From positions 3,105,910-3,169,909 of the forward strand of contig NZ_CP031165.1 of assembly GCF_003344865.1 (NCBI RefSeq): 64,000 nucleotides of DNA, read 5' to 3'. Position numbers and translations under genes: made by a program. The notes below the pieces were generated by a model. That model was given only the letters and a program-made list of their open reading frames with translations, had not been told where the DNA came from and did no database searches. Shown piece after piece: positions 1-7,486 of the stretch. Within the stretch, counting starts at the first letter, position 1. Each line of letters begins with the position of its first letter. The stretch comes from Euzebya pacifica. Its GTDB lineage: Bacteria > Actinomycetota > Nitriliruptoria > Euzebyales > Euzebyaceae.

Positions 1-1
1 G

Positions 2-892
2 CACGACATCCTCGCCGAGCGTTGGGGCCACTGGTCGGCCGGGGTGCGCACCGACGTCGTCACCGCCGTCGGTGCGCTGGTCCGGTCCGACGACGAACAA
101 TGGCTCGAGGCAGCCCTGCGTGACGAGACCCCACGGGTGCGGCACGCCGCGGCACGAGCACTCGGCAGGCTGCCCGACAGCCGACGCGCCCAGCGCATGG
201 CCGAGCGACTGGTCCGGCTGGTCCACCTCGACCCGCCCCGACGGGCCGGATCGGGTGCCGAGCGTTCCCGAGCCGCCACGGTGACGCTGGCGGACGTCAG
301 GCCCTCGACGGCCGATCTCGTGGATGCGACGGCGGCACCACCCCCAGTGGGCCTCACCGCCTGGTGGCAGGGCCAGGTCCTGTCGGCTGCGCCGCGGCAC
401 GCATGGGAGCGCCTGACGGGATCACTCGATGCCACCACCGCCGTGCTGGCCGACCACCCGCCCCTGCTGCTCGCGGCCGCTCGGGCCGCCGCGGACCAAC
501 GGGACGCCATCTTGGCCGAGCGCCTGAGGCCAGCGTTGCTGGCAGCCCACGAGGCACCGGTGCCACCCGGAGCCGTCCTGCCCCCGGGTGGTGACCGCTG
601 GATGGAGCGGCTGCACGACGTCCTGGCCCTCGTGGACGGGCCGTGGTCGCCGGAACTGACCGACGACGTCGTCACCTGGTGCGCAACCCACCCGCGGCCG
701 GGCACGGCCCTGGGCACCATGGCCACGCTGCTGGCAACCCGCGCCGGTGGCGTGCTGGACCAACGCCTCGCCGCTGCCCGACCCACGGGACTCCACGCGC
801 AGATGGTCGCATCGACGATCGACCGCATCAGCCTGTCCCGCTCGTTGTACCGGGCCATCGACCACATGATCCACGACCGGACCGAACCGTGA
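2..892 (+). CDS. DUF5691-like helical-repeat protein, 5' end missing
   Basis: The frame is open from the left edge (first full codon at position 2) to TGA at 890-892, so the true start is outside the window; 296 residues are visible. The N-terminal part contains a HEAT/ARM-like helix pair (RDETPRVRHAAARALGRL) and the rest is rich in Ala and Leu and probably all-helical. There is no signal peptide or membrane segment in the visible part. It lies 19 bases upstream of a MoxR-type ATPase gene on the same strand, and proteins of the DUF5691 family sit at this place in related MoxR/VWA loci. Assignment to DUF5691 rests on context and general character, not on a diagnostic motif. A plausible role is scaffold or adaptor of the cassette; its biochemical function is unknown. 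Confidence 0.5.
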   Translation, partial: HDILAERWGHWSAGVRTDVVTAVGALVRSDDEQWLEAALRDETPRVRHAAARALGRLPDSRRAQRMAERLVRLVHLDPPRRAGSGAERSRAATVTLADVRPSTADLVDATAAPPPVGLTAWWQGQVLSAAPRHAWERLTGSLDATTAVLADHPPLLLAAARAAADQRDAILAERLRPALLAAHEAPVPPGAVLPPGGDRWMERLHDVLALVDGPWSPELTDDVVTWCATHPRPGTALGTMATLLATRAGGVLDQRLAAARPTGLHAQMVASTIDRISLSRSLYRAIDHMIHDRTEP

Positions 893-911
893 TCCCGCCC
901 GGAGCCTCCAC

Positions 912-2012
912 ATGACCGACAACGCCGCCCACCCTGCGGCTGCGCAGCGTCCCCACGCCGAGGACGCCTTCGCCGACGAGCTGGCCGCCATCGGGGCAGC
1001 GGACGACCGGCCGCGTCCCCCGTCGTGGCGCCTGTCGCCGTGGGCCGTCGCCCTCTACCTGCTGGGCGGGACCCTGCCCGACGGCACCGTCATCGAGCCC
1101 AAGTACATCGGCCGGCGACGCCTGATCGAGGTGGCCATCGCCACGCTGGCCACCGACCGTGCGCTGCTGCTCCTCGGCGTGCCGGGGACGGCGAAGACCT
1201 GGGTGTCGGAGCACCTGGCCGCCGCGATCTCCGGCCGGTCGACCCGGATCGTGCAGGGCACGGCCGGCACCCCGGAGGAGGCCATCCGGTACGGCTGGAA
1301 CTACGCCTCGTTGCTGGCCAAGGGGCCATCGTTGGAGGCCATGGTCCCCTCGCCGGTCACGAGGGCCATGGAGGAGGGGTCGGTGTGCCGCATCGAGGAG
1401 CTGACCCGCATCCCTGCCGACGTGCAGGACGCCCTCATCACCATCCTGTCGGAGAAGTCGATGCCGATCCCGGAGCTCGACATGGAGGTGCAGGCGGTCC
1501 CCGGCTTCAACGTCATCGCGACGGCAAACGACCGCGACAAGGGTGTCAACGACCTGTCCTCGGCGCTGCGTCGTCGCTTCAACACCGTCGTCCTGCCGCT
1601 GCCCGACACCGTGGAGGAGGAGGTGGAGATCGTCCGCACCCGGGTCACCGCCCTCGGCGAGTCCCTGGCCCTGCCGGCCGACCTCGACGCGTTGTCGCAG
1701 ATCCAGCGGGTCGTCACGATCTTCAAGGAGCTGCGCGAGGGACGGACCGTCGACGGGCGTGCGGCCGTCAAGACGCCGTCCTCGACCCTGTCGACCGCCG
1801 AGGCGATCAGCGTCATGACCAACGGGCTGTCCCTGGCGGCGCACTTCGGGGACGGCCGTGTCTCCGCAGCCGACATCGCCGGTGGGATCCGGGGCGCGGT
1901 CGTGAAGGACCCCGTCCAGGACGCCATCGTGTGGACCGAGTACCTCGACACCGTCGTGCGTGACCGGGACGACTGGAACGACCTGTACGCCGCCTGCCGA
2001 GAGCTCGGCTAG
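912..2012 (+). CDS. MoxR-type AAA+ ATPase
   Basis: A 366-residue MoxR-group AAA+ ATPase. The Walker A motif is GVPGTAKTW at about residues 89-97. The Walker B region reads CRIEE, with Glu in place of the usual first Asp. Sensor 1 is VIATAND and the arginine-finger strand LRRRF follows. MoxR proteins use ATP to remodel or activate partner proteins and are usually encoded next to a VWA protein, as here. The ATG at 912 has GGAG eight bases upstream. The stop codon is directly followed by the ATG of the next gene (TAGATG), so the two are probably translationally coupled. The order MoxR, large conserved protein, VWA protein recalls the YehL subfamily loci of enterobacteria. The substrate is unknown. 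Confidence 0.9.
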   Translation: MTDNAAHPAAAQRPHAEDAFADELAAIGAADDRPRPPSWRLSPWAVALYLLGGTLPDGTVIEPKYIGRRRLIEVAIATLATDRALLLLGVPGTAKTWVSEHLAAAISGRSTRIVQGTAGTPEEAIRYGWNYASLLAKGPSLEAMVPSPVTRAMEEGSVCRIEELTRIPADVQDALITILSEKSMPIPELDMEVQAVPGFNVIATANDRDKGVNDLSSALRRRFNTVVLPLPDTVEEEVEIVRTRVTALGESLALPADLDALSQIQRVVTIFKELREGRTVDGRAAVKTPSSTLSTAEAISVMTNGLSLAAHFGDGRVSAADIAGGIRGAVVKDPVQDAIVWTEYLDTVVRDRDDWNDLYAACRELG

Positions 2013-4202
2013 ATGCCGACCGACGACGTGGTGGTGTGTGGGGTGCGCCATCACGGCCCCGGATCCGCCAGGTCGGTCCTGACCGTCCTGGAGCAGGTCG
2101 CACCCGCGCACGTCGTCATCGAGGGGCCGCCCGAGCTGGACGGCATCGTCGAATGGGCGGGGGCCGAGGACCTCGTGCCGCCGGTCGCGGCCCTCGTCCA
2201 TCGTCCCGACGTGCCCTCGCGGTCGTCGTTCTACCCCATGGCCACGTTCAGCCCGGAATGGAACGCCCTGCGCTGGGCCGTGCGCAACGACGTGCCCGTG
2301 TCCTTCGCCGACCTGCCGGCCACCAACGAGCTCGCCGACGGCTACGACCGGGACGACGTGCCCGGGGAGTCCCTCGATCCCATCGGGCAGCTCGCCGCGG
2401 CGGCCGGCTACACCGATGCCGAACGCTGGTGGGAGGACGCCGTCGAGCACCGGCACACCGCCGCCGCGGGGTTCGCGGCCATCACCGATGCCATCGCCGC
2501 CATGCGGTCCGACCACGACGACGACCCGCACCTGCGACGTCGTGAAGCCGCAATGCGTCGGGTGCTGCGCGCCGTCATGGCGTCGGTGGACGGGCCCGTC
2601 GTGGTGGTCTGCGGGGCCTACCATGCGCCGGCGCTCACCCCGGAGCGGTTCCCGACCAAGACCGCGGACACCACCACGCTGAAGGGGCTCCGGCGGCAGA
2701 AGGTCGCGGTGACATGGGTGCCGTGGACGTCGGGCCGCCTTGCCGCCGGATCGGGGTACGGCGCCGGCGTGACCTCTCCGGGCTGGTATGCCCATTGCTT
2801 CGCCACCGACGACGACCAGCGGGTCGACCGCTGGATGGTGAAGGTCGCCCGGGCGCTGCGGAACGCCGACCTGTCGGCACCCACCGCGTCGGCGATCGAG
2901 GCGGCCAGGCTGGCCGCGAGCCTGGCGTCGTTGCGTGGCCGTCCTCGTGCCGGCCTCGCGGAGTGCACCGACGCCGCCCTGGCGGTGCTGTGCGGCGGAC
3001 GACCCGAGCCGCTGCAGGTGATCCACGACGAGGTCGTGGTCGGCCACGAGCTGGGCGCCGTGCCCGAGGGGATCCCACAGGTCCCGCTGGCCCGCGACCT
3101 CGAGTCCGCAGCCCGGTCGGCCCGGCTGAATCGGACCGCCGACGCCAGGACCATCGTCTGTGACCTGCGGACGCCCGCGGGGGCCGCCAAGTCCGTCCTG
3201 CTCCACCGCCTGTTGCTGCTGGGCATCCGCTGGGGACGTCCCGCGGACGCCGGCGGGACGACGGGCACCTTCAAGGAGGGCTGGACGCTGCAGTGGCGAC
3301 CCGAGCTCGCCGTGGCGGTCATCGCCGCGTCGGTCCATGGCGGCACCGTCGAGCAGGCCGCGACGGTCCGGGCCATCGGCCGGGCCCGCATGGCCGAACA
3401 CCTCGTGGACGTCGTCGACCTGCTGCACGAGTGCCTGCCCGCCGACCTCCCGGACGCCACCGGCGCGCTGGTCGAGGAGGTCGATCGACGTGCGGCCACC
3501 ACCCACGACACGCTGCACCTGATGCGCGCCACCGAACCGTTGGCACGGGTCTGCCGCTACGGCGACGTCCGGCAGCTCGACACCAGCCGGCTTCGTGACG
3601 TCCTCGACAGCCTGGTGCGCCGGATCTGTGCCGGCCTGTCCACCGCCGTCGTCGGGCTGGACGACGATGCCGCAGCCGACGCCCGGGCGGGCATCGACGC
3701 ACTGATCGCCGCTGTCCGCCTGCTGGACCATCCCGTCCTGACCGACCTGTGGGTCGCGGCGGTCGGCAAGCTCGTCGATCGTCGCCGTGTCCACGACGGC
3801 ATCGTGGGGCGATCCGTCCGCTACCTCCTCGACGGCGGCCACCTGTCGGCCGAGGACGTGGCCGGCCGCCTGTCGCGGGCGCTGTCGCCGGCCCGCCCCG
3901 CGCGTGACGCCGCGGCGTGGGTCGACGGATTCCTCGACGGCGACGCCGCCCTCCTGCTGCTCGACCCGACGCTGCTGGGGATGCTCGACGGGTGGATCAG
4001 CACCGTGGACGTCGACGTGTACGACGACCTGCTGCCCCTGCTCCGCCGTACCTTCTCGCGCTACACGCCCACGGAGCGCAACCACATCGGCCAGCGCCTG
4101 CGCCACGGCACGTCCCGCGTGGCGGAGGAGCGTCCCCTGGATCCGGTCGCGGCCACGCACGCCATCCGCCACGTCCTCGAGCTGTACGGGGCGACGACGT
4201 GA
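2013..4202 (+). CDS. DUF5682-like protein with two GX2H motifs
   Basis: A 729-residue cytoplasmic protein of the type found between MoxR and VWA genes (DUF5682 family, by context and N-terminal signature). Residues 6-18 read VVVCGVRHHGPGS, followed by a strand ending in VIEGP with Glu37. A second motif, CGAYHAPAL, lies at about 200-208. The pair G10-V-R-H13 and G201-A-Y-H204 plus the acidic Glu37 recalls the GX2H/Glu signature of the TIKI/TraB/ChaN/EreA superfamily, some members of which are metal-dependent hydrolases. The remaining 500 residues are helical and unassigned. The ATG abuts the MoxR stop codon, and the TGA overlaps the GTG of the VWA gene, so the three genes form one translational unit. 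Hydrolase activity is inference only. Confidence 0.75.
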   Translation: MPTDDVVVCGVRHHGPGSARSVLTVLEQVAPAHVVIEGPPELDGIVEWAGAEDLVPPVAALVHRPDVPSRSSFYPMATFSPEWNALRWAVRNDVPVSFADLPATNELADGYDRDDVPGESLDPIGQLAAAAGYTDAERWWEDAVEHRHTAAAGFAAITDAIAAMRSDHDDDPHLRRREAAMRRVLRAVMASVDGPVVVVCGAYHAPALTPERFPTKTADTTTLKGLRRQKVAVTWVPWTSGRLAAGSGYGAGVTSPGWYAHCFATDDDQRVDRWMVKVARALRNADLSAPTASAIEAARLAASLASLRGRPRAGLAECTDAALAVLCGGRPEPLQVIHDEVVVGHELGAVPEGIPQVPLARDLESAARSARLNRTADARTIVCDLRTPAGAAKSVLLHRLLLLGIRWGRPADAGGTTGTFKEGWTLQWRPELAVAVIAASVHGGTVEQAATVRAIGRARMAEHLVDVVDLLHECLPADLPDATGALVEEVDRRAATTHDTLHLMRATEPLARVCRYGDVRQLDTSRLRDVLDSLVRRICAGLSTAVVGLDDDAAADARAGIDALIAAVRLLDHPVLTDLWVAAVGKLVDRRRVHDGIVGRSVRYLLDGGHLSAEDVAGRLSRALSPARPARDAAAWVDGFLDGDAALLLLDPTLLGMLDGWISTVDVDVYDDLLPLLRRTFSRYTPTERNHIGQRLRHGTSRVAEERPLDPVAATHAIRHVLELYGATT

Positions 4203-5383
4203 CCGACCACGAGGTTCCGGACGCCCGCGCCGAGGAGCGCCTCAGGCGGTGGCGCCTCGTGCTCGGGTCCGACAACGACGCCGACGGCACCGGCGTCGGA
4301 CTGACGGGGGCGGACCTGCAGCGCGACAGCGCCCTGGAGGCCCTCTACGGCAGCAACACCCGACGCCAGGGCGGGCTTGCCGGGTCCTCACCCCGAGTGG
4401 CGCGGTGGCTGGGGGACATCCGCACCTTCTTTCCCTCCACCGTGGTGCAGGTCATGCAGCGCGACGCCATGACACGCCTGGGCCTTGCCGACCTGCTGCT
4501 CGAGCCCGAGATGATCGATGCCGTCCAGCCCGACCTCGACATGGTCACCACCCTGATGGGCCTCTCCGGTGCCATCCCCGACCGGTCGAAGCAGGCAGCC
4601 CGCCTCCTGGTGAGGGCCGTCACCGACGACCTGGTCGCCCGGTTGGAGTCCACCACCCGACAGGCGATCAGCGGCGCCATCAACCGATCGGCGCGGACCC
4701 GCAGGCCACGCCACGGCGACATCGACTGGCCGGCGACCATCGCGGCCAACCTCGCGCACTACCAGCCCGAGTACCGCACGGTCATCCCGCACCGGCTGGT
4801 GGGCCATGCGCGTCGGCGCAGCCACATCGACCGGCGGATCGTGCTGTGCCTCGACCAGTCCGGTTCGATGGCCGACAGCATCGTCTACGCGTCGGTGTTC
4901 GGCGCGATCCTTGCGTCGTTGCCGGCGGTCGACGTGCGCCTGGTGGTGTTCGACACGACAGTCGTCGACCTGACCGACCGGGTCGAGGACCCCGTCGACG
5001 TGCTGTTCGGCGTGCAGCTGGGTGGGGGCACCGACATCAACGCGGCCCTCGCGTACTGCCAGCAGCTGATCGAGCAGCCCAGCGACACCGTGTTCGTCCT
5101 GGTGTCGGACCTCCACGAGGGCGGGGTCCGGACCGAGATGCTGCGGCGCTTCGGCCAGCTCGTCACCTCCGGGACCACCGCGATCGCGCTGCTGACGCTG
5201 TCCGACACCGGCACGCCGTCGTGGGACGCCGACAACGCTGCCGCCCTCGCCGAGCTCGGGGTGCCGGCCTTCGCCTGCACCCCCGACCTGTTCGCCGACA
5301 TGATGGCCGGCGCGATCAACCGTGACGACGTCGGCCGCTGGGCCGCCGACAACGACATCGCCGTGGCTCAGCCTCCCGAATGA
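4199..5383 (+). CDS. VWA domain protein (CoxE-like partner of MoxR)
   Basis: A 394-residue protein starting at a GTG that overlaps the preceding stop codon (GTGA). The C-terminal half is a von Willebrand factor A domain. Its MIDAS metal site is visible as CLDQSGSMAD with the first Asp near residue 219, followed by GGGTDINAAL and LVSDLHEG, which supply the further metal ligands expected of the fold. The N-terminal 200 residues are helical and charged. VWA proteins beside MoxR ATPases bind metal and substrate proteins and act with the ATPase. No signal peptide or membrane helix is seen, so it should be cytoplasmic. A frame extending further upstream exists but overlaps DUF5682 by almost 300 bases and lacks sense as protein. 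Confidence 0.88.
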   Translation: MTDHEVPDARAEERLRRWRLVLGSDNDADGTGVGLTGADLQRDSALEALYGSNTRRQGGLAGSSPRVARWLGDIRTFFPSTVVQVMQRDAMTRLGLADLLLEPEMIDAVQPDLDMVTTLMGLSGAIPDRSKQAARLLVRAVTDDLVARLESTTRQAISGAINRSARTRRPRHGDIDWPATIAANLAHYQPEYRTVIPHRLVGHARRRSHIDRRIVLCLDQSGSMADSIVYASVFGAILASLPAVDVRLVVFDTTVVDLTDRVEDPVDVLFGVQLGGGTDINAALAYCQQLIEQPSDTVFVLVSDLHEGGVRTEMLRRFGQLVTSGTTAIALLTLSDTGTPSWDADNAAALAELGVPAFACTPDLFADMMAGAINRDDVGRWAADNDIAVAQPPE

Positions 5384-5405: not shown

Positions 5406-7379
5406 TCAGCCGTCCGCGAGCACGATCACCCGGTCGCCAGCCCCGAGCCGGACCTCCCCCGAGCGAGGGGGATTGACCACCACGCCGTAGGCGGCTGCGG
5501 GGTCGTCGGCCCGGGCGATCAACCGATAGCCGATGGCCGTCTCGCCCCGGGCCGAGGCGGCGGCGACAACCGTGCTGAAGGGGGTGGACAGGTCGGGCAG
5601 TACGTACTGCTCGGCCGGACGGAGGTAGATCTCGGAGCCCGACGGGTCGAACAGCTGGGCGAAGACCGTCTGGAGGTCCGGTGCCTCCGAGACCTGGCTC
5701 ATCAACAGGCTGATCAGCCGCTCGGACACGATGAAGTCGTCCGCGGACGTGGTCCGCAACAGCTCGCGGTTGCGGCTGTCGAGGACCTCGGTCACGACCG
5801 CGAACCGGGCGTCCGTGCGGCCGGCAAGATCCCGGAGGTGCAGCAAGGTGATCATGGTGTCGGTGTCGGCGGCGTCCCGGCTCTCCGCACCTGCGTCGGC
5901 CAGGATGATCACGTGGTCCATCCTCGCCAGGTCCAGCGCCTCCAGGACGGCCCGTCGGGTGATGTCAGCCGTTCCGGCAGTCAACGCGAGGGTGTTCAGC
6001 TCGGCCGCAAGGTCGGCCAGCGCCGGCTGCACGTCGACATCGTTGCTCACGACGTGCACCGTCGAACCGTGGGGGACGTAGGCATCCAGGTTGCGCAGCA
6101 GCACCGTGCCGCGATCGTTCCATCCGAGCACGAGGGTCCGCTCGGGCGGTGAAGTGACGGGCTCGACCGCCACGACGTGGTCCTCCACTGGCGTGGCCAC
6201 GGGGGCTGACGCCGGGATCACTCGGTCGTCATCGGCGGCGATGGCGATCACGTCGTCGCCGGCGGCCATCACGGTGTCGGCGGCCGGATTGAGGGTGATG
6301 GTGCCGTCCGGCCGACGCAGGCCGATCGGGCTGGCCCCCTCGTAGGCCAGCAGCACCTCACCCCAGCTCCGACCGTCCAGCGACGGCGCCGGTGCGAAGT
6401 AGATCTCGTCACCGTCGAAGTCGAGCAGCTCGTGGATCACCACCGACAGGCCGGACTGGCGACAGGTCTGCGCCGTGATCCGTGCGATGAGGTCGCCCAC
6501 GTCGAGCAGCCGGACGTCACCGCCACCGATGATCTCCGCCACCTCCCGGTTGGCGGGGTCCTCGAGTGTGGCCACGATGTGGTTGCACCCCCGCGGACGG
6601 ACCGAGGGGTCGCCAAGTGCCAGGAGGGCCCGCAGGACGAAGCGATCGTCGTGGTCGTCCTCCGGGGTGACCACCACGATCGAGCGCGCCGTGGCTGGAC
6701 TCGCGATGGCCAGGTCGGCGATCGACGTGGGCCTGCCCGAGCGGCAGATCACACGGGTGTGTCCCAGCTGGTCGCCGAGCTGTTCGCGGATCTCGTCCTC
6801 CATCTCGACCTTGTCGCGATCGGCCAGGACCACCACCTTCGGGCGGGATCGGTTCTCGTTGGCCACGGCGAGCTCAGCGAGGATCACGAGGGCCTTCGGG
6901 GACCAGCCGAGGATCAGCGAGTGCCCGTCCTCGACCACCACCGACCGCCCCTTCCGGAGCTGCTCCAGTCGACCCTCGATCCCGGTCGTCAGGACACCGA
7001 TGAGGGTCGACAGGATGAACAGCCCGCCGATGGTGACCAGCAGCATCACCGCACGGAACGGCCATCCCACATCGGCGCCGACGGCCCCGGCGTCGAGCGC
7101 ACGCATCAGCGCTTGCCACGTCGCTTCTGCGACCCCGAGCGACTCGGCATCTGCAGGACGCAGCCCGAGCAGGACGAGGGCGGCCGCACCGGTCATCACG
7201 ACCGCCGCGGACAGGAGGGCCAGCCAGCCGATCAACGCGACGGGCCCACGCGACAGGGATCGATCCAGGGCATACGCCAACCGCAGCCTGGTGGACCTCG
7301 ACCGCCGGGATACGCCCCGTGGCTCGTCACTGACGGTTGCTGGCGGACGGCGGCGGGCTCGCACGGCGGGCGCGGTCAT
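5406..7379 (-). CDS. CASTOR/POLLUX-like ion channel with two RCK/TrkA-N domains
   Basis: A 657-residue membrane protein. Two transmembrane helices (about residues 46-72 and 107-133) flank a short pore-like segment. A first Rossmann-type RCK domain follows (SLILGWSPKALVILAEL, from about 148) and a second starts near residue 415 (TLVLGWNDRGTVLLRNL). This matches the bacterial relatives of plant CASTOR and POLLUX, which form ligand-gated cation channels. The usual potassium-selectivity motif TVGYG is absent from the pore region, as in CASTOR-type proteins. I chose the ATG at 7379. A GTG at 7484 would add 35 residues of poor quality and would overlap the promoter of the divergent MFS gene. It is convergent with the VWA gene, with 22 bases between them. 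Ion selectivity and ligand cannot be read from the sequence. Confidence 0.8.
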   Translation of the reverse strand: MTAPAVRARRRPPATVSDEPRGVSRRSRSTRLRLAYALDRSLSRGPVALIGWLALLSAAVVMTGAAALVLLGLRPADAESLGVAEATWQALMRALDAGAVGADVGWPFRAVMLLVTIGGLFILSTLIGVLTTGIEGRLEQLRKGRSVVVEDGHSLILGWSPKALVILAELAVANENRSRPKVVVLADRDKVEMEDEIREQLGDQLGHTRVICRSGRPTSIADLAIASPATARSIVVVTPEDDHDDRFVLRALLALGDPSVRPRGCNHIVATLEDPANREVAEIIGGGDVRLLDVGDLIARITAQTCRQSGLSVVIHELLDFDGDEIYFAPAPSLDGRSWGEVLLAYEGASPIGLRRPDGTITLNPAADTVMAAGDDVIAIAADDDRVIPASAPVATPVEDHVVAVEPVTSPPERTLVLGWNDRGTVLLRNLDAYVPHGSTVHVVSNDVDVQPALADLAAELNTLALTAGTADITRRAVLEALDLARMDHVIILADAGAESRDAADTDTMITLLHLRDLAGRTDARFAVVTEVLDSRNRELLRTTSADDFIVSERLISLLMSQVSEAPDLQTVFAQLFDPSGSEIYLRPAEQYVLPDLSTPFSTVVAAASARGETAIGYRLIARADDPAAAYGVVVNPPRSGEVRLGAGDRVIVLADG

Positions 7380-7471
7380 GGCTCTCAGTTCTTCACGGGC
7401 CCGTCGTCGGGCCGAACCGGCTGCAAGGTACTCCCTGCACGCCTCGTCTGCACCGACGGTGACCCGGCCGC

Positions 7472-7477
7472 TAGATT
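7472..7477 (+). promoter_or_regulatory. -10 box of the MFS gene (leaderless)
   Basis: TAGATT lies nine bases upstream of the ATG at 7487. Transcription from this box would start at or next to the start codon, which fits the absence of a ribosome binding site. No convincing -35 box is seen. Confidence 0.55.
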
Positions 7478-7486
7478 CGGCCACAG

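What the first reader, a model, noticed from the sequence alone, without database searches (positions are those of the whole stretch)
2013..4202. DUF5682-like protein of a MoxR/VWA cassette carries the two GX2H motifs and Glu of the TIKI/TraB superfamily
Seen: GVRH at residues 10-13, Glu37 in VIEGP, and GAYH at 201-204, each at the end of a hydrophobic strand. Known: TIKI/TraB proteins, related to ChaN and EreA, carry a pair of GX2H motifs and a conserved Glu, and TIKI is a metalloprotease. Inferred: the cassette may pair a AAA+ remodeller and a VWA metal-binding adaptor with a hidden hydrolase, which would give a working hypothesis for a MoxR system whose role is not known.
Basis: partly seen in the sequence, partly recalled or inferred. 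Interest (0 to 1): 0.72.

Follow-up and report, generated by a model that had tools for sequence, protein, structure and literature searches.

The report
TIKI-fold hydrolase in a MoxR cassette
The uncharacterised protein DUF5682 (YehM in E. coli) almost certainly has the fold and the conserved active-site residues of the TIKI/TraB/erythromycin-esterase enzymes, which gives a widespread ATP-driven gene cassette of unknown role a first testable activity.

Summary
Two GX2H motifs alone are at chance level for this composition, but conservation is not. Of 25 His only H13, H14 and H204 are invariant in two alignments. In 46 profile-found homologues, including E. coli YehM and two very divergent forms, H13, E37, D100, R177, E178, M181, G201 and H204 never change; H14, R12 and G10 do. 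AlphaFold2 models are confident (pLDDT about 90). The N-terminal domain aligned alone against solved structures gives ChaN, HopBA1, EreC, BcR135, PMT and RRSP (Z 8.6-5.4) below one unverified subunit, then a drop to Z 4.2; the best viral match is a TraB protein (E 1.3e-4). The order H–E–acidic–R/D–M–GXXH matches TraB, ChaN and Ere families. The protein sits in a cassette SWIM–DUF5691–MoxR–DUF5682–VWA shared across phyla; 95% of E. coli genomes carry yehM. Best reading: a TIKI-superfamily hydrolase working with a MoxR/VWA remodeller. Fold membership about 0.95, catalytic competence about 0.65; substrate unknown.

The parts
1..892 (+). C-terminal part of the DUF5691 / HEAT-repeat protein (gene starts upstream of the window at about genome C1:3105323; the SWIM zinc-finger gene, C1:3103977-3105326, lies wholly upstream)
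   Evidence: PF18944 E 3.2e-38 on the whole 492-aa protein; SWIM PF04434 20.0 bits (cut-off 19.6) on the upstream gene; CSCPSRKQPCKH motif
912..2012 (+). MoxR-type AAA+ ATPase (366 aa)
   Evidence: PF07728 AAA_5 E 1.3e-38; GVPGTAKT Walker A in the translation
2013..4202 (+). DUF5682 protein, orthologue of E. coli YehM
   Evidence: PF18934 E 5.2e-227; AlphaFold2 model mean pLDDT 90.2, pTM 0.86
2013..2747 (+). TIKI/TraB/EreA/ChaN-fold domain, residues 1 to about 245
   Evidence: domain model pLDDT 89.5, pTM 0.88; VIA-align: ChaN Z 8.6, HopBA1 8.0, EreC 7.5, BcR135 7.2-7.5, PMT 6.7, RRSP 5.4, then a drop to 4.2
2040..2051 (+). motif 1, G10-V-R-H13, after strand 1
   Evidence: H13 46/46, R12 44/46, G10 39/46
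2121..2123 (+). E37, last residue of strand 2
   Evidence: 46/46 invariant
2310..2312 (+). D100, after strand 96-99 (FADLP); same place in the order as ChaN N103 (ALNxP) and Ere D (FYGxD)
   Evidence: 46/46 invariant; family consensus
2541..2555 (+). R177-E-A-A-M181 helix motif, same place as TraB RN, Ere RDxxM, ChaN DxTM; R261 in EreC
   Evidence: R177, E178, M181 46/46 invariant; hhalign register with TraB and Ere
2613..2624 (+). motif 2, G201-A-Y-H204, after strand 196-201
   Evidence: G201 and H204 46/46 invariant
4199..5383 (+). CoxE-type VWA protein (GTG start overlapping the DUF5682 stop by 4 bases), MIDAS DQSGS at 4853-4867
   Evidence: PF05762 E 5.7e-52; MIDAS motif and junction

Best explanation
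DUF5682/YehM is a two-part protein. Its N-terminal 245 residues or so are a TIKI/TraB/EreA/ChaN-superfamily alpha/beta domain with a retained hydrolase-type active site: H13 as base, E37 and H204 holding the attacking water, R177 stabilising the transition state, D100 nearby, by analogy with EreC H50/E78/H289/R261. The rest is mainly helical. It works as the hydrolase partner of a YehL-type MoxR AAA+/VWA pair: the VWA protein plugs the MoxR ring and docks the hydrolase or its target, ATP hydrolysis remodels it, and the SWIM and HEAT proteins scaffold or recruit the target. Shown: fold match, invariance, cassette linkage, fusion to VWA. Inferred: the active-site assignment, catalysis, target delivery. 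The substrate (peptide, amide or ester) is unknown.
For: Fold: the N-domain model gives, below three entries of one unverified Tetrahymena subunit, only TIKI-superfamily entries down to row 14, then a drop to Z 4.2; ChaN tops the whole-protein list at Z 9.5, model 1..218; the best BFVD match is a TraB-family protein, E 1.3e-4, prob 1.00. Residues: H13, E37, D100, R177, E178, M181, G201, H204 invariant in 46 of 46. Order and spacing: H-to-E 24 residues here, 26 TraB, 28 ChaN, 28 EreC; R/D-to-H 27 here, 25 TraB, 27 ChaN, 28 EreC R261-H289. hhalign puts R177..H204 in register with TraB RN..GAxH, score 25.9 against a shuffle maximum of 16.8. Linkage: 70 of 70 loci with enough flank have MoxR directly upstream, 68 VWA downstream, 68 SWIM; all 18 phylum genomes with DUF5691 above cut-off also have DUF5682. 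DUF5682 is fused to the VWA protein in L020 and L023 and L026.
Against: Foldseek alone is weak: no PDB match at E <= 0.001, best EreC at E 0.11. hhalign probabilities are low, as they mostly are between the known families with these small alignments. Against ChaN the real score (22.5) hardly beats the reversed alignment (22.1). The glutamate next to the first His in Ere, RRSP and ChaN is missing (G10/V11). PMT keeps the fold but lacks the catalytic motif and showed no KRas-cleaving activity (PMC6254334), so fold does not prove catalysis. No activity or interaction data were found.
Confidence: 0.6

Rival explanations
1. DUF5682 is the client, not a working partner: the MoxR/VWA pair remodels it, perhaps for metal or cofactor loading, as NorQD does for NO reductase, and the hydrolase then acts on its own.
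For: In the well-studied NorQD pair the VWA domain plugs the MoxR ring and docks a target through its MIDAS site (PMC9976466). DUF5682 is encoded between MoxR and VWA in nearly every locus. TIKI needs metal (PMC6254334).
Against: DUF5682 fused to the VWA protein in L020, L023 and L026 suggests a permanent subunit; SWIM and HEAT proteins would lack a role.
Confidence: 0.3
2. The TIKI domain has lost catalysis and serves as a binding module: cofactor binding as in ChaN, or structural as in PMT.
For: ChaN, a heme-binding protein, is among the closest folds; PMT has the fold without the catalytic residues (PMC6254334). The Glu that tunes the base His in EreC is missing here.
Against: The whole H-E-D-R-H set is invariant in 46 of 46 across several phyla; binding modules such as PMT lose it.
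Confidence: 0.15
3. It is a histidine phosphatase: GVRHHG looks like the RHG motif and the fold is a Rossmann-like relative.
For: Foldseek ranks Sts-1 phosphatases just below EreC; RHH at the end of strand 1.
Against: VIA-align Z is at most 4.2 for phosphatases against 5.4-9.4 for the rows above them. The Arg before the His is Cys in L029/L030, whereas the RHG Arg is essential in phosphatases (own knowledge). E37 and R177..M181 have no phosphatase counterpart that I know of.
Confidence: 0.03
4. The GX2H pair is a chance coincidence in an unrelated fold.
For: Two GxxH are expected by chance in this protein (mean 1.88).
Against: Structure matches, invariance and spacing.
Confidence: 0.02

Closest known systems
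E. coli yehL-yehM-yehP-yehQ operon (YehM, NP_416624)
   Same: MoxR, DUF5682 (E 2.4e-98), CoxE-type VWA and SWIM genes; same invariant residues H11, E35, D101, R175, H202 (own count)
   Different: No DUF5691 gene between these four and a longer SWIM protein placed last; YehM about 24% identical in alignment A1
TraB/PrgY/TIKI family (PF01963)
   Same: GxxH, E, RN helix and GAxH in the same order; closest by hhalign score and by BFVD match
   Different: hmmscan of DUF5682 does not find PF01963 at E <= 1; about 485 extra C-terminal residues and a MoxR/VWA operon in place of a stand-alone protein
Erythromycin esterases EreC / BcR135 (PF05139)
   Same: Fold Z 7.2-7.5; H50/E78/R261/H289 counterparts (PMC7979712)
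   Different: Lacks the Glu (E47) that tunes the base His
ChaN heme-binding lipoprotein (PF04187, 2g5g)
   Same: Best verified fold match, Z 8.6 domain alone and 9.5 whole protein...M..LLLAGSYH against ...M..VVVCGAYH
   Different: ChaN binds heme; Asn where DUF5682 has D100; D(x)xM where DUF5682 has RExxM
NorQ/NorD, CbbQ/CbbO and other MoxR/VWA pairs
   Same: MoxR AAA+ next to a VWA protein with MIDAS (PMC9976466)
   Different: No TIKI-fold partner known to me in those systems
MoxR-vWA-beta-propeller (VMAP) ternary conflict systems (PMC7159879)
   Same: MoxR plus VWA as core; bpMoxR model also rings weakly, 28.1 bits against cut-off 27
   Different: Third member there is a beta-propeller/VMAP; that paper holds no mention of TIKI, TraB or SWIM

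Membership tests
TIKI/TraB/EreA/ChaN superfamily | parallel beta-sheet alpha/beta core of the TIKI type | tested here: met
   AlphaFold2 domain model (pLDDT 89.5) matches ChaN Z 8.6, HopBA1 8.0, EreC 7.5, BcR135 7.2-7.5, PMT 6.7, RRSP 5.4; next unrelated row 4.2. Viral TraB protein E 1.3e-4.
TIKI/TraB/EreA/ChaN superfamily | conserved His after strand 1 (first GX2H) | tested here: met
   H13 46/46; the Gly is Pro in 7 of 46, so the His but not the strict GX2H
TIKI/TraB/EreA/ChaN superfamily | Glu at the end of strand 2 | tested here: met
   E37 46/46, last residue of strand 33-37
TIKI/TraB/EreA/ChaN superfamily | second GX2H / AHNxH after the late strand, preceded by an R/D..M helix | tested here: met
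   R177, E178, M181, G201, H204 46/46; register with TraB and Ere
TIKI/TraB/EreA/ChaN superfamily | the catalytic residues cluster in space | not testable with these tools
   model coordinates are not released to the session; only the secondary-structure placement is known
TIKI/TraB/EreA/ChaN superfamily | hydrolase activity | not testable with these tools
   no assay; no published assay found
Ere/RRSP-type 2His/2Glu subgroup | second Glu next to the first His (E47 EreC, E3900 RRSP) | tested here: not met
   positions 10-12 are G/P, V/I, R/C. TraB members have Thr there too, so this excludes the subgroup, not the superfamily.
Pfam TraB_PrgY_gumN (PF01963) proper | match to the family profile | tested here: not met
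   only PF18934 rings at E <= 1
YehL-type MoxR cassette (yehLMPQ) | MoxR + DUF5682 + CoxE-type VWA + SWIM genes together | tested here: met
   all four in the window genome and in 68-70 of 70 loci
Histidine phosphatase superfamily | invariant RHG Arg-His | tested here: not met
   Arg replaced by Cys in L029 and L030 while His stays

The most novel reading that the evidence does not exclude
The cassette is a new type of ATP-dependent processing machine: a MoxR/VWA remodeller permanently coupled to a TIKI-fold peptidase or amidase, with SWIM and HEAT proteins as target recruiters, present in E. coli as YehLMPQ and conserved across many phyla.
Probability: 0.25. Interest if true: 0.85.

Novelty: new variant of a known kind. 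Interest (0 to 1): 0.62.

Why it matters
YehLMPQ is near-universal in E. coli (yehM at 80% length or more in 5,166 of 5,426 complete genomes), and I found no functional study of it in the papers searched. Assigning YehM to a hydrolase superfamily, with five named residues to mutate, turns a 'MoxR system of unknown role' into a direct biochemical question and would add a hydrolase to the partners of MoxR/VWA machines.

Tried and rejected
Sequence searches of solved structures with P0001 or A1 found nothing credible. Foldseek with the whole model matched only helical repeats; the helical C-terminal matches (Z up to 9.2) are in the range the tool warns about, so I draw no conclusion on that half. 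hhalign with small alignments is underpowered: the known pairs Ere-ChaN and TraB-Ere also score near noise. NCBIfam and PADLOC gave no hit for DUF5682. Viral contigs held no confirmed relative; one phage-collection record did. Literature on DUF5682 or YehM: DUF5682 0 papers; yehM appears only in lists, such as mutations in copper-evolved E. coli, which I do not use as evidence. The Sanchez-Pulido and Ponting TIKI paper is not held. Antisense frame 828-4172 (-), 1114 aa, is a GC-rich artefact opposite conserved coding sequence. Whether Pfam or ECOD already place PF18934 in the TIKI clan could not be checked. Histidine phosphatase was considered and rejected (rivals).

Full report
What is there. 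Window 2013-4202 (+) encodes a 729-aa DUF5682 protein (PF18934, E 5.2e-227). It starts on the base after the MoxR stop and overlaps the VWA start by four bases. The operon begins upstream of the window: SWIM zinc-finger gene, DUF5691/HEAT gene, MoxR AAA+, DUF5682, CoxE-type VWA with a DQSGS MIDAS. A similar five-gene order occurs in Fusobacterium (its second gene rings for no Pfam family). E. coli K-12 has yehL-yehM-yehP-yehQ, of which YehM is DUF5682.

The observation. The motifs are at the stated residues. As bare motifs they are no evidence: shuffled copies carry 1.88 GxxH on average. The evidence is conservation. In A1 (15 sequences, found mostly by a Pfam profile that starts after motif 1) and A2 (54 sequences, seeded on motif 1), only three of 25 His are invariant: 13, 14 and 204. 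Adding Proteobacteria and a Fusobacterium (46 sequences in all) removes H14 (Phe in Fusobacterium), R12 (Cys in L029/L030) and G10 (Pro in 7), and leaves H13, E37, S80, E82, D100, W140, E145, R165, R177, E178, M181, G201, H204 and G252 invariant among the positions checked.

The fold. The full-length AlphaFold2 model has mean pLDDT 90.2. Among the chains compared by VIA-align the top row is ChaN 2g5g, Z 9.5 over 158 residues, model 1..218. The domain 1-254 modelled alone has pLDDT 89.5 and pTM 0.88. Its VIA-align list starts with a Tetrahymena complex IV subunit (three entries, Z 9.3-9.4; its family was not verified), then ChaN 8.6, HopBA1 8.0 (147 residues, rmsd 3.3), 2qgm/2rad/3b55 7.2-7.5, EreC 7.5 and 7.3, PMT 6.5-6.7 and RRSP 5.4, and then drops to histidine phosphatases at 4.2 and below. 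RRSP's own paper names PMT, HopBA1, BcR135 and ChaN as TIKI-superfamily relatives (PMC6254334), so the list recovers that superfamily and little else. In the viral library the best match is a TraB-family protein, E 1.3e-4. Against this, Foldseek in the PDB has no match at E <= 0.001, with EreC first at 0.11.

The active site. Family alignments made here give TraB G18-T-x-H21, E47, R213-N, G235-A-x-H238; ChaN G14-E-x-H17, E45, N103, D173-x-T-M176, G197-x-x-H200; Ere late motif R-D-x-x-M and A-H-N-x-H. The Ere first His and Glu are visible in the extended sequence and in the alignments to BcR135 and EreC. DUF5682 has H13, E37, D100, R177-E-x-x-M181 and G201-A-x-H204 in the same order. In EreC, H50 is the base, E78 and H289 hold the water, E47 tunes H50 and R261 stabilises the transition state (PMC7979712). 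H13, E37, H204 and R177 would be H50, E78, H289 and R261; the E47 counterpart is missing, as in TraB. Whether a metal is used cannot be said: TIKI is metal-dependent, RRSP and Ere are described as metal-independent. Spatial clustering was not measured because coordinates are not released; it is inferred from placement at the ends of strands and from the superposition.

Profile comparison. hhalign scores for the DUF5682 N-domain against TraB, Ere and ChaN (25.9, 21.0, 22.5) exceed 60 of 60 column shuffles each and put R177..H204 in register; the known pairs score 17.4 to 29.9. Probabilities are low throughout, and the reversed ChaN control (22.1) is close to the real ChaN score. I treat this as consistent, not decisive.

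The cassette. In 70 loci with enough flank MoxR is directly upstream in 70, VWA downstream in 68 and SWIM near in 68, in Actinomycetota, Cyanobacteria, Bacteroidota, Planctomycetota, Acidobacteriota and Proteobacteria (record titles); a Chloroflexi contig too short for that count also shows MoxR-DUF5682-VWA. In 296 genomes of the phylum 21 have DUF5682 and 18 have DUF5691 above cut-off; all 18 are among the 21. Single-chain DUF5682-VWA fusions occur in L020 and L023 and L026. One exception is L055 (Acaryochloris), with DUF5682 but no MoxR in 8 kb upstream.

How it most likely works. MoxR rings use a VWA partner that plugs the pore and docks a target through its MIDAS (NorQD, PMC9976466). A threading protease is therefore unlikely. 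The better model is a hydrolase docked on, or remodelled by, the VWA/MoxR pair, with SWIM and HEAT proteins giving target choice. The fusions favour a permanent subunit over a passing client; the alternative, that DUF5682 is the client that needs remodelling or metal loading, stays open at about 0.3.

Verdict. Superfamily membership about 0.95, working hydrolase about 0.65, peptidase/amidase coupled to MoxR about 0.25. The finding is sound and better than its own stated evidence.

Noticed in passing
genome C1:3100000-3113000 (L031): Contig 1 (5,799,875 bp) plus contig 2 (571,580 bp) fit my memory of Euzebya pacifica DY32-46 (Nitriliruptoria); not checked against a named record.
   Followed up: no
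L055:7986-10244: Acaryochloris DUF5682 without MoxR in 8 kb upstream or VWA in 2 kb downstream: an orphan copy, or the cassette is split across the genome.
   Followed up: partly
L020, L023, L026: DUF5682 fused to the CoxE-type VWA protein in one chain; L022, L024 and L025 are similar long frames not examined in full.
   Followed up: partly
L029:1500-3264 and L030:1500-3315: Very divergent DUF5682 relatives with PVCHHSP, YLELC, RERYM and GAFH; L030 has a MoxR gene next to it. Possibly a separate subfamily.
   Followed up: partly
window 5406-7484 (-): Castor/Pollux-type ion channel with TrkA/RCK domains (PF06241, E 3.5e-28), convergent with the VWA gene.
   Followed up: no
MT835988.1:10638-12755: A 14-kb record labelled Bacteriophage sp. 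from human faeces encodes a full-length DUF5682 relative (25.8% identity); could be a mislabelled bacterial fragment.
   Followed up: no
E. coli strain HNSQ2209, NZ_CP137737.1:1867916-1871259: yehM interrupted by an IS5-family element in this strain.
   Followed up: no
PDB 8b6h_DQ: A Tetrahymena complex IV subunit is the top structural match of the domain (Z 9.4), suggesting a TIKI-fold protein in ciliate mitochondria; its family was not verified.
   Followed up: no
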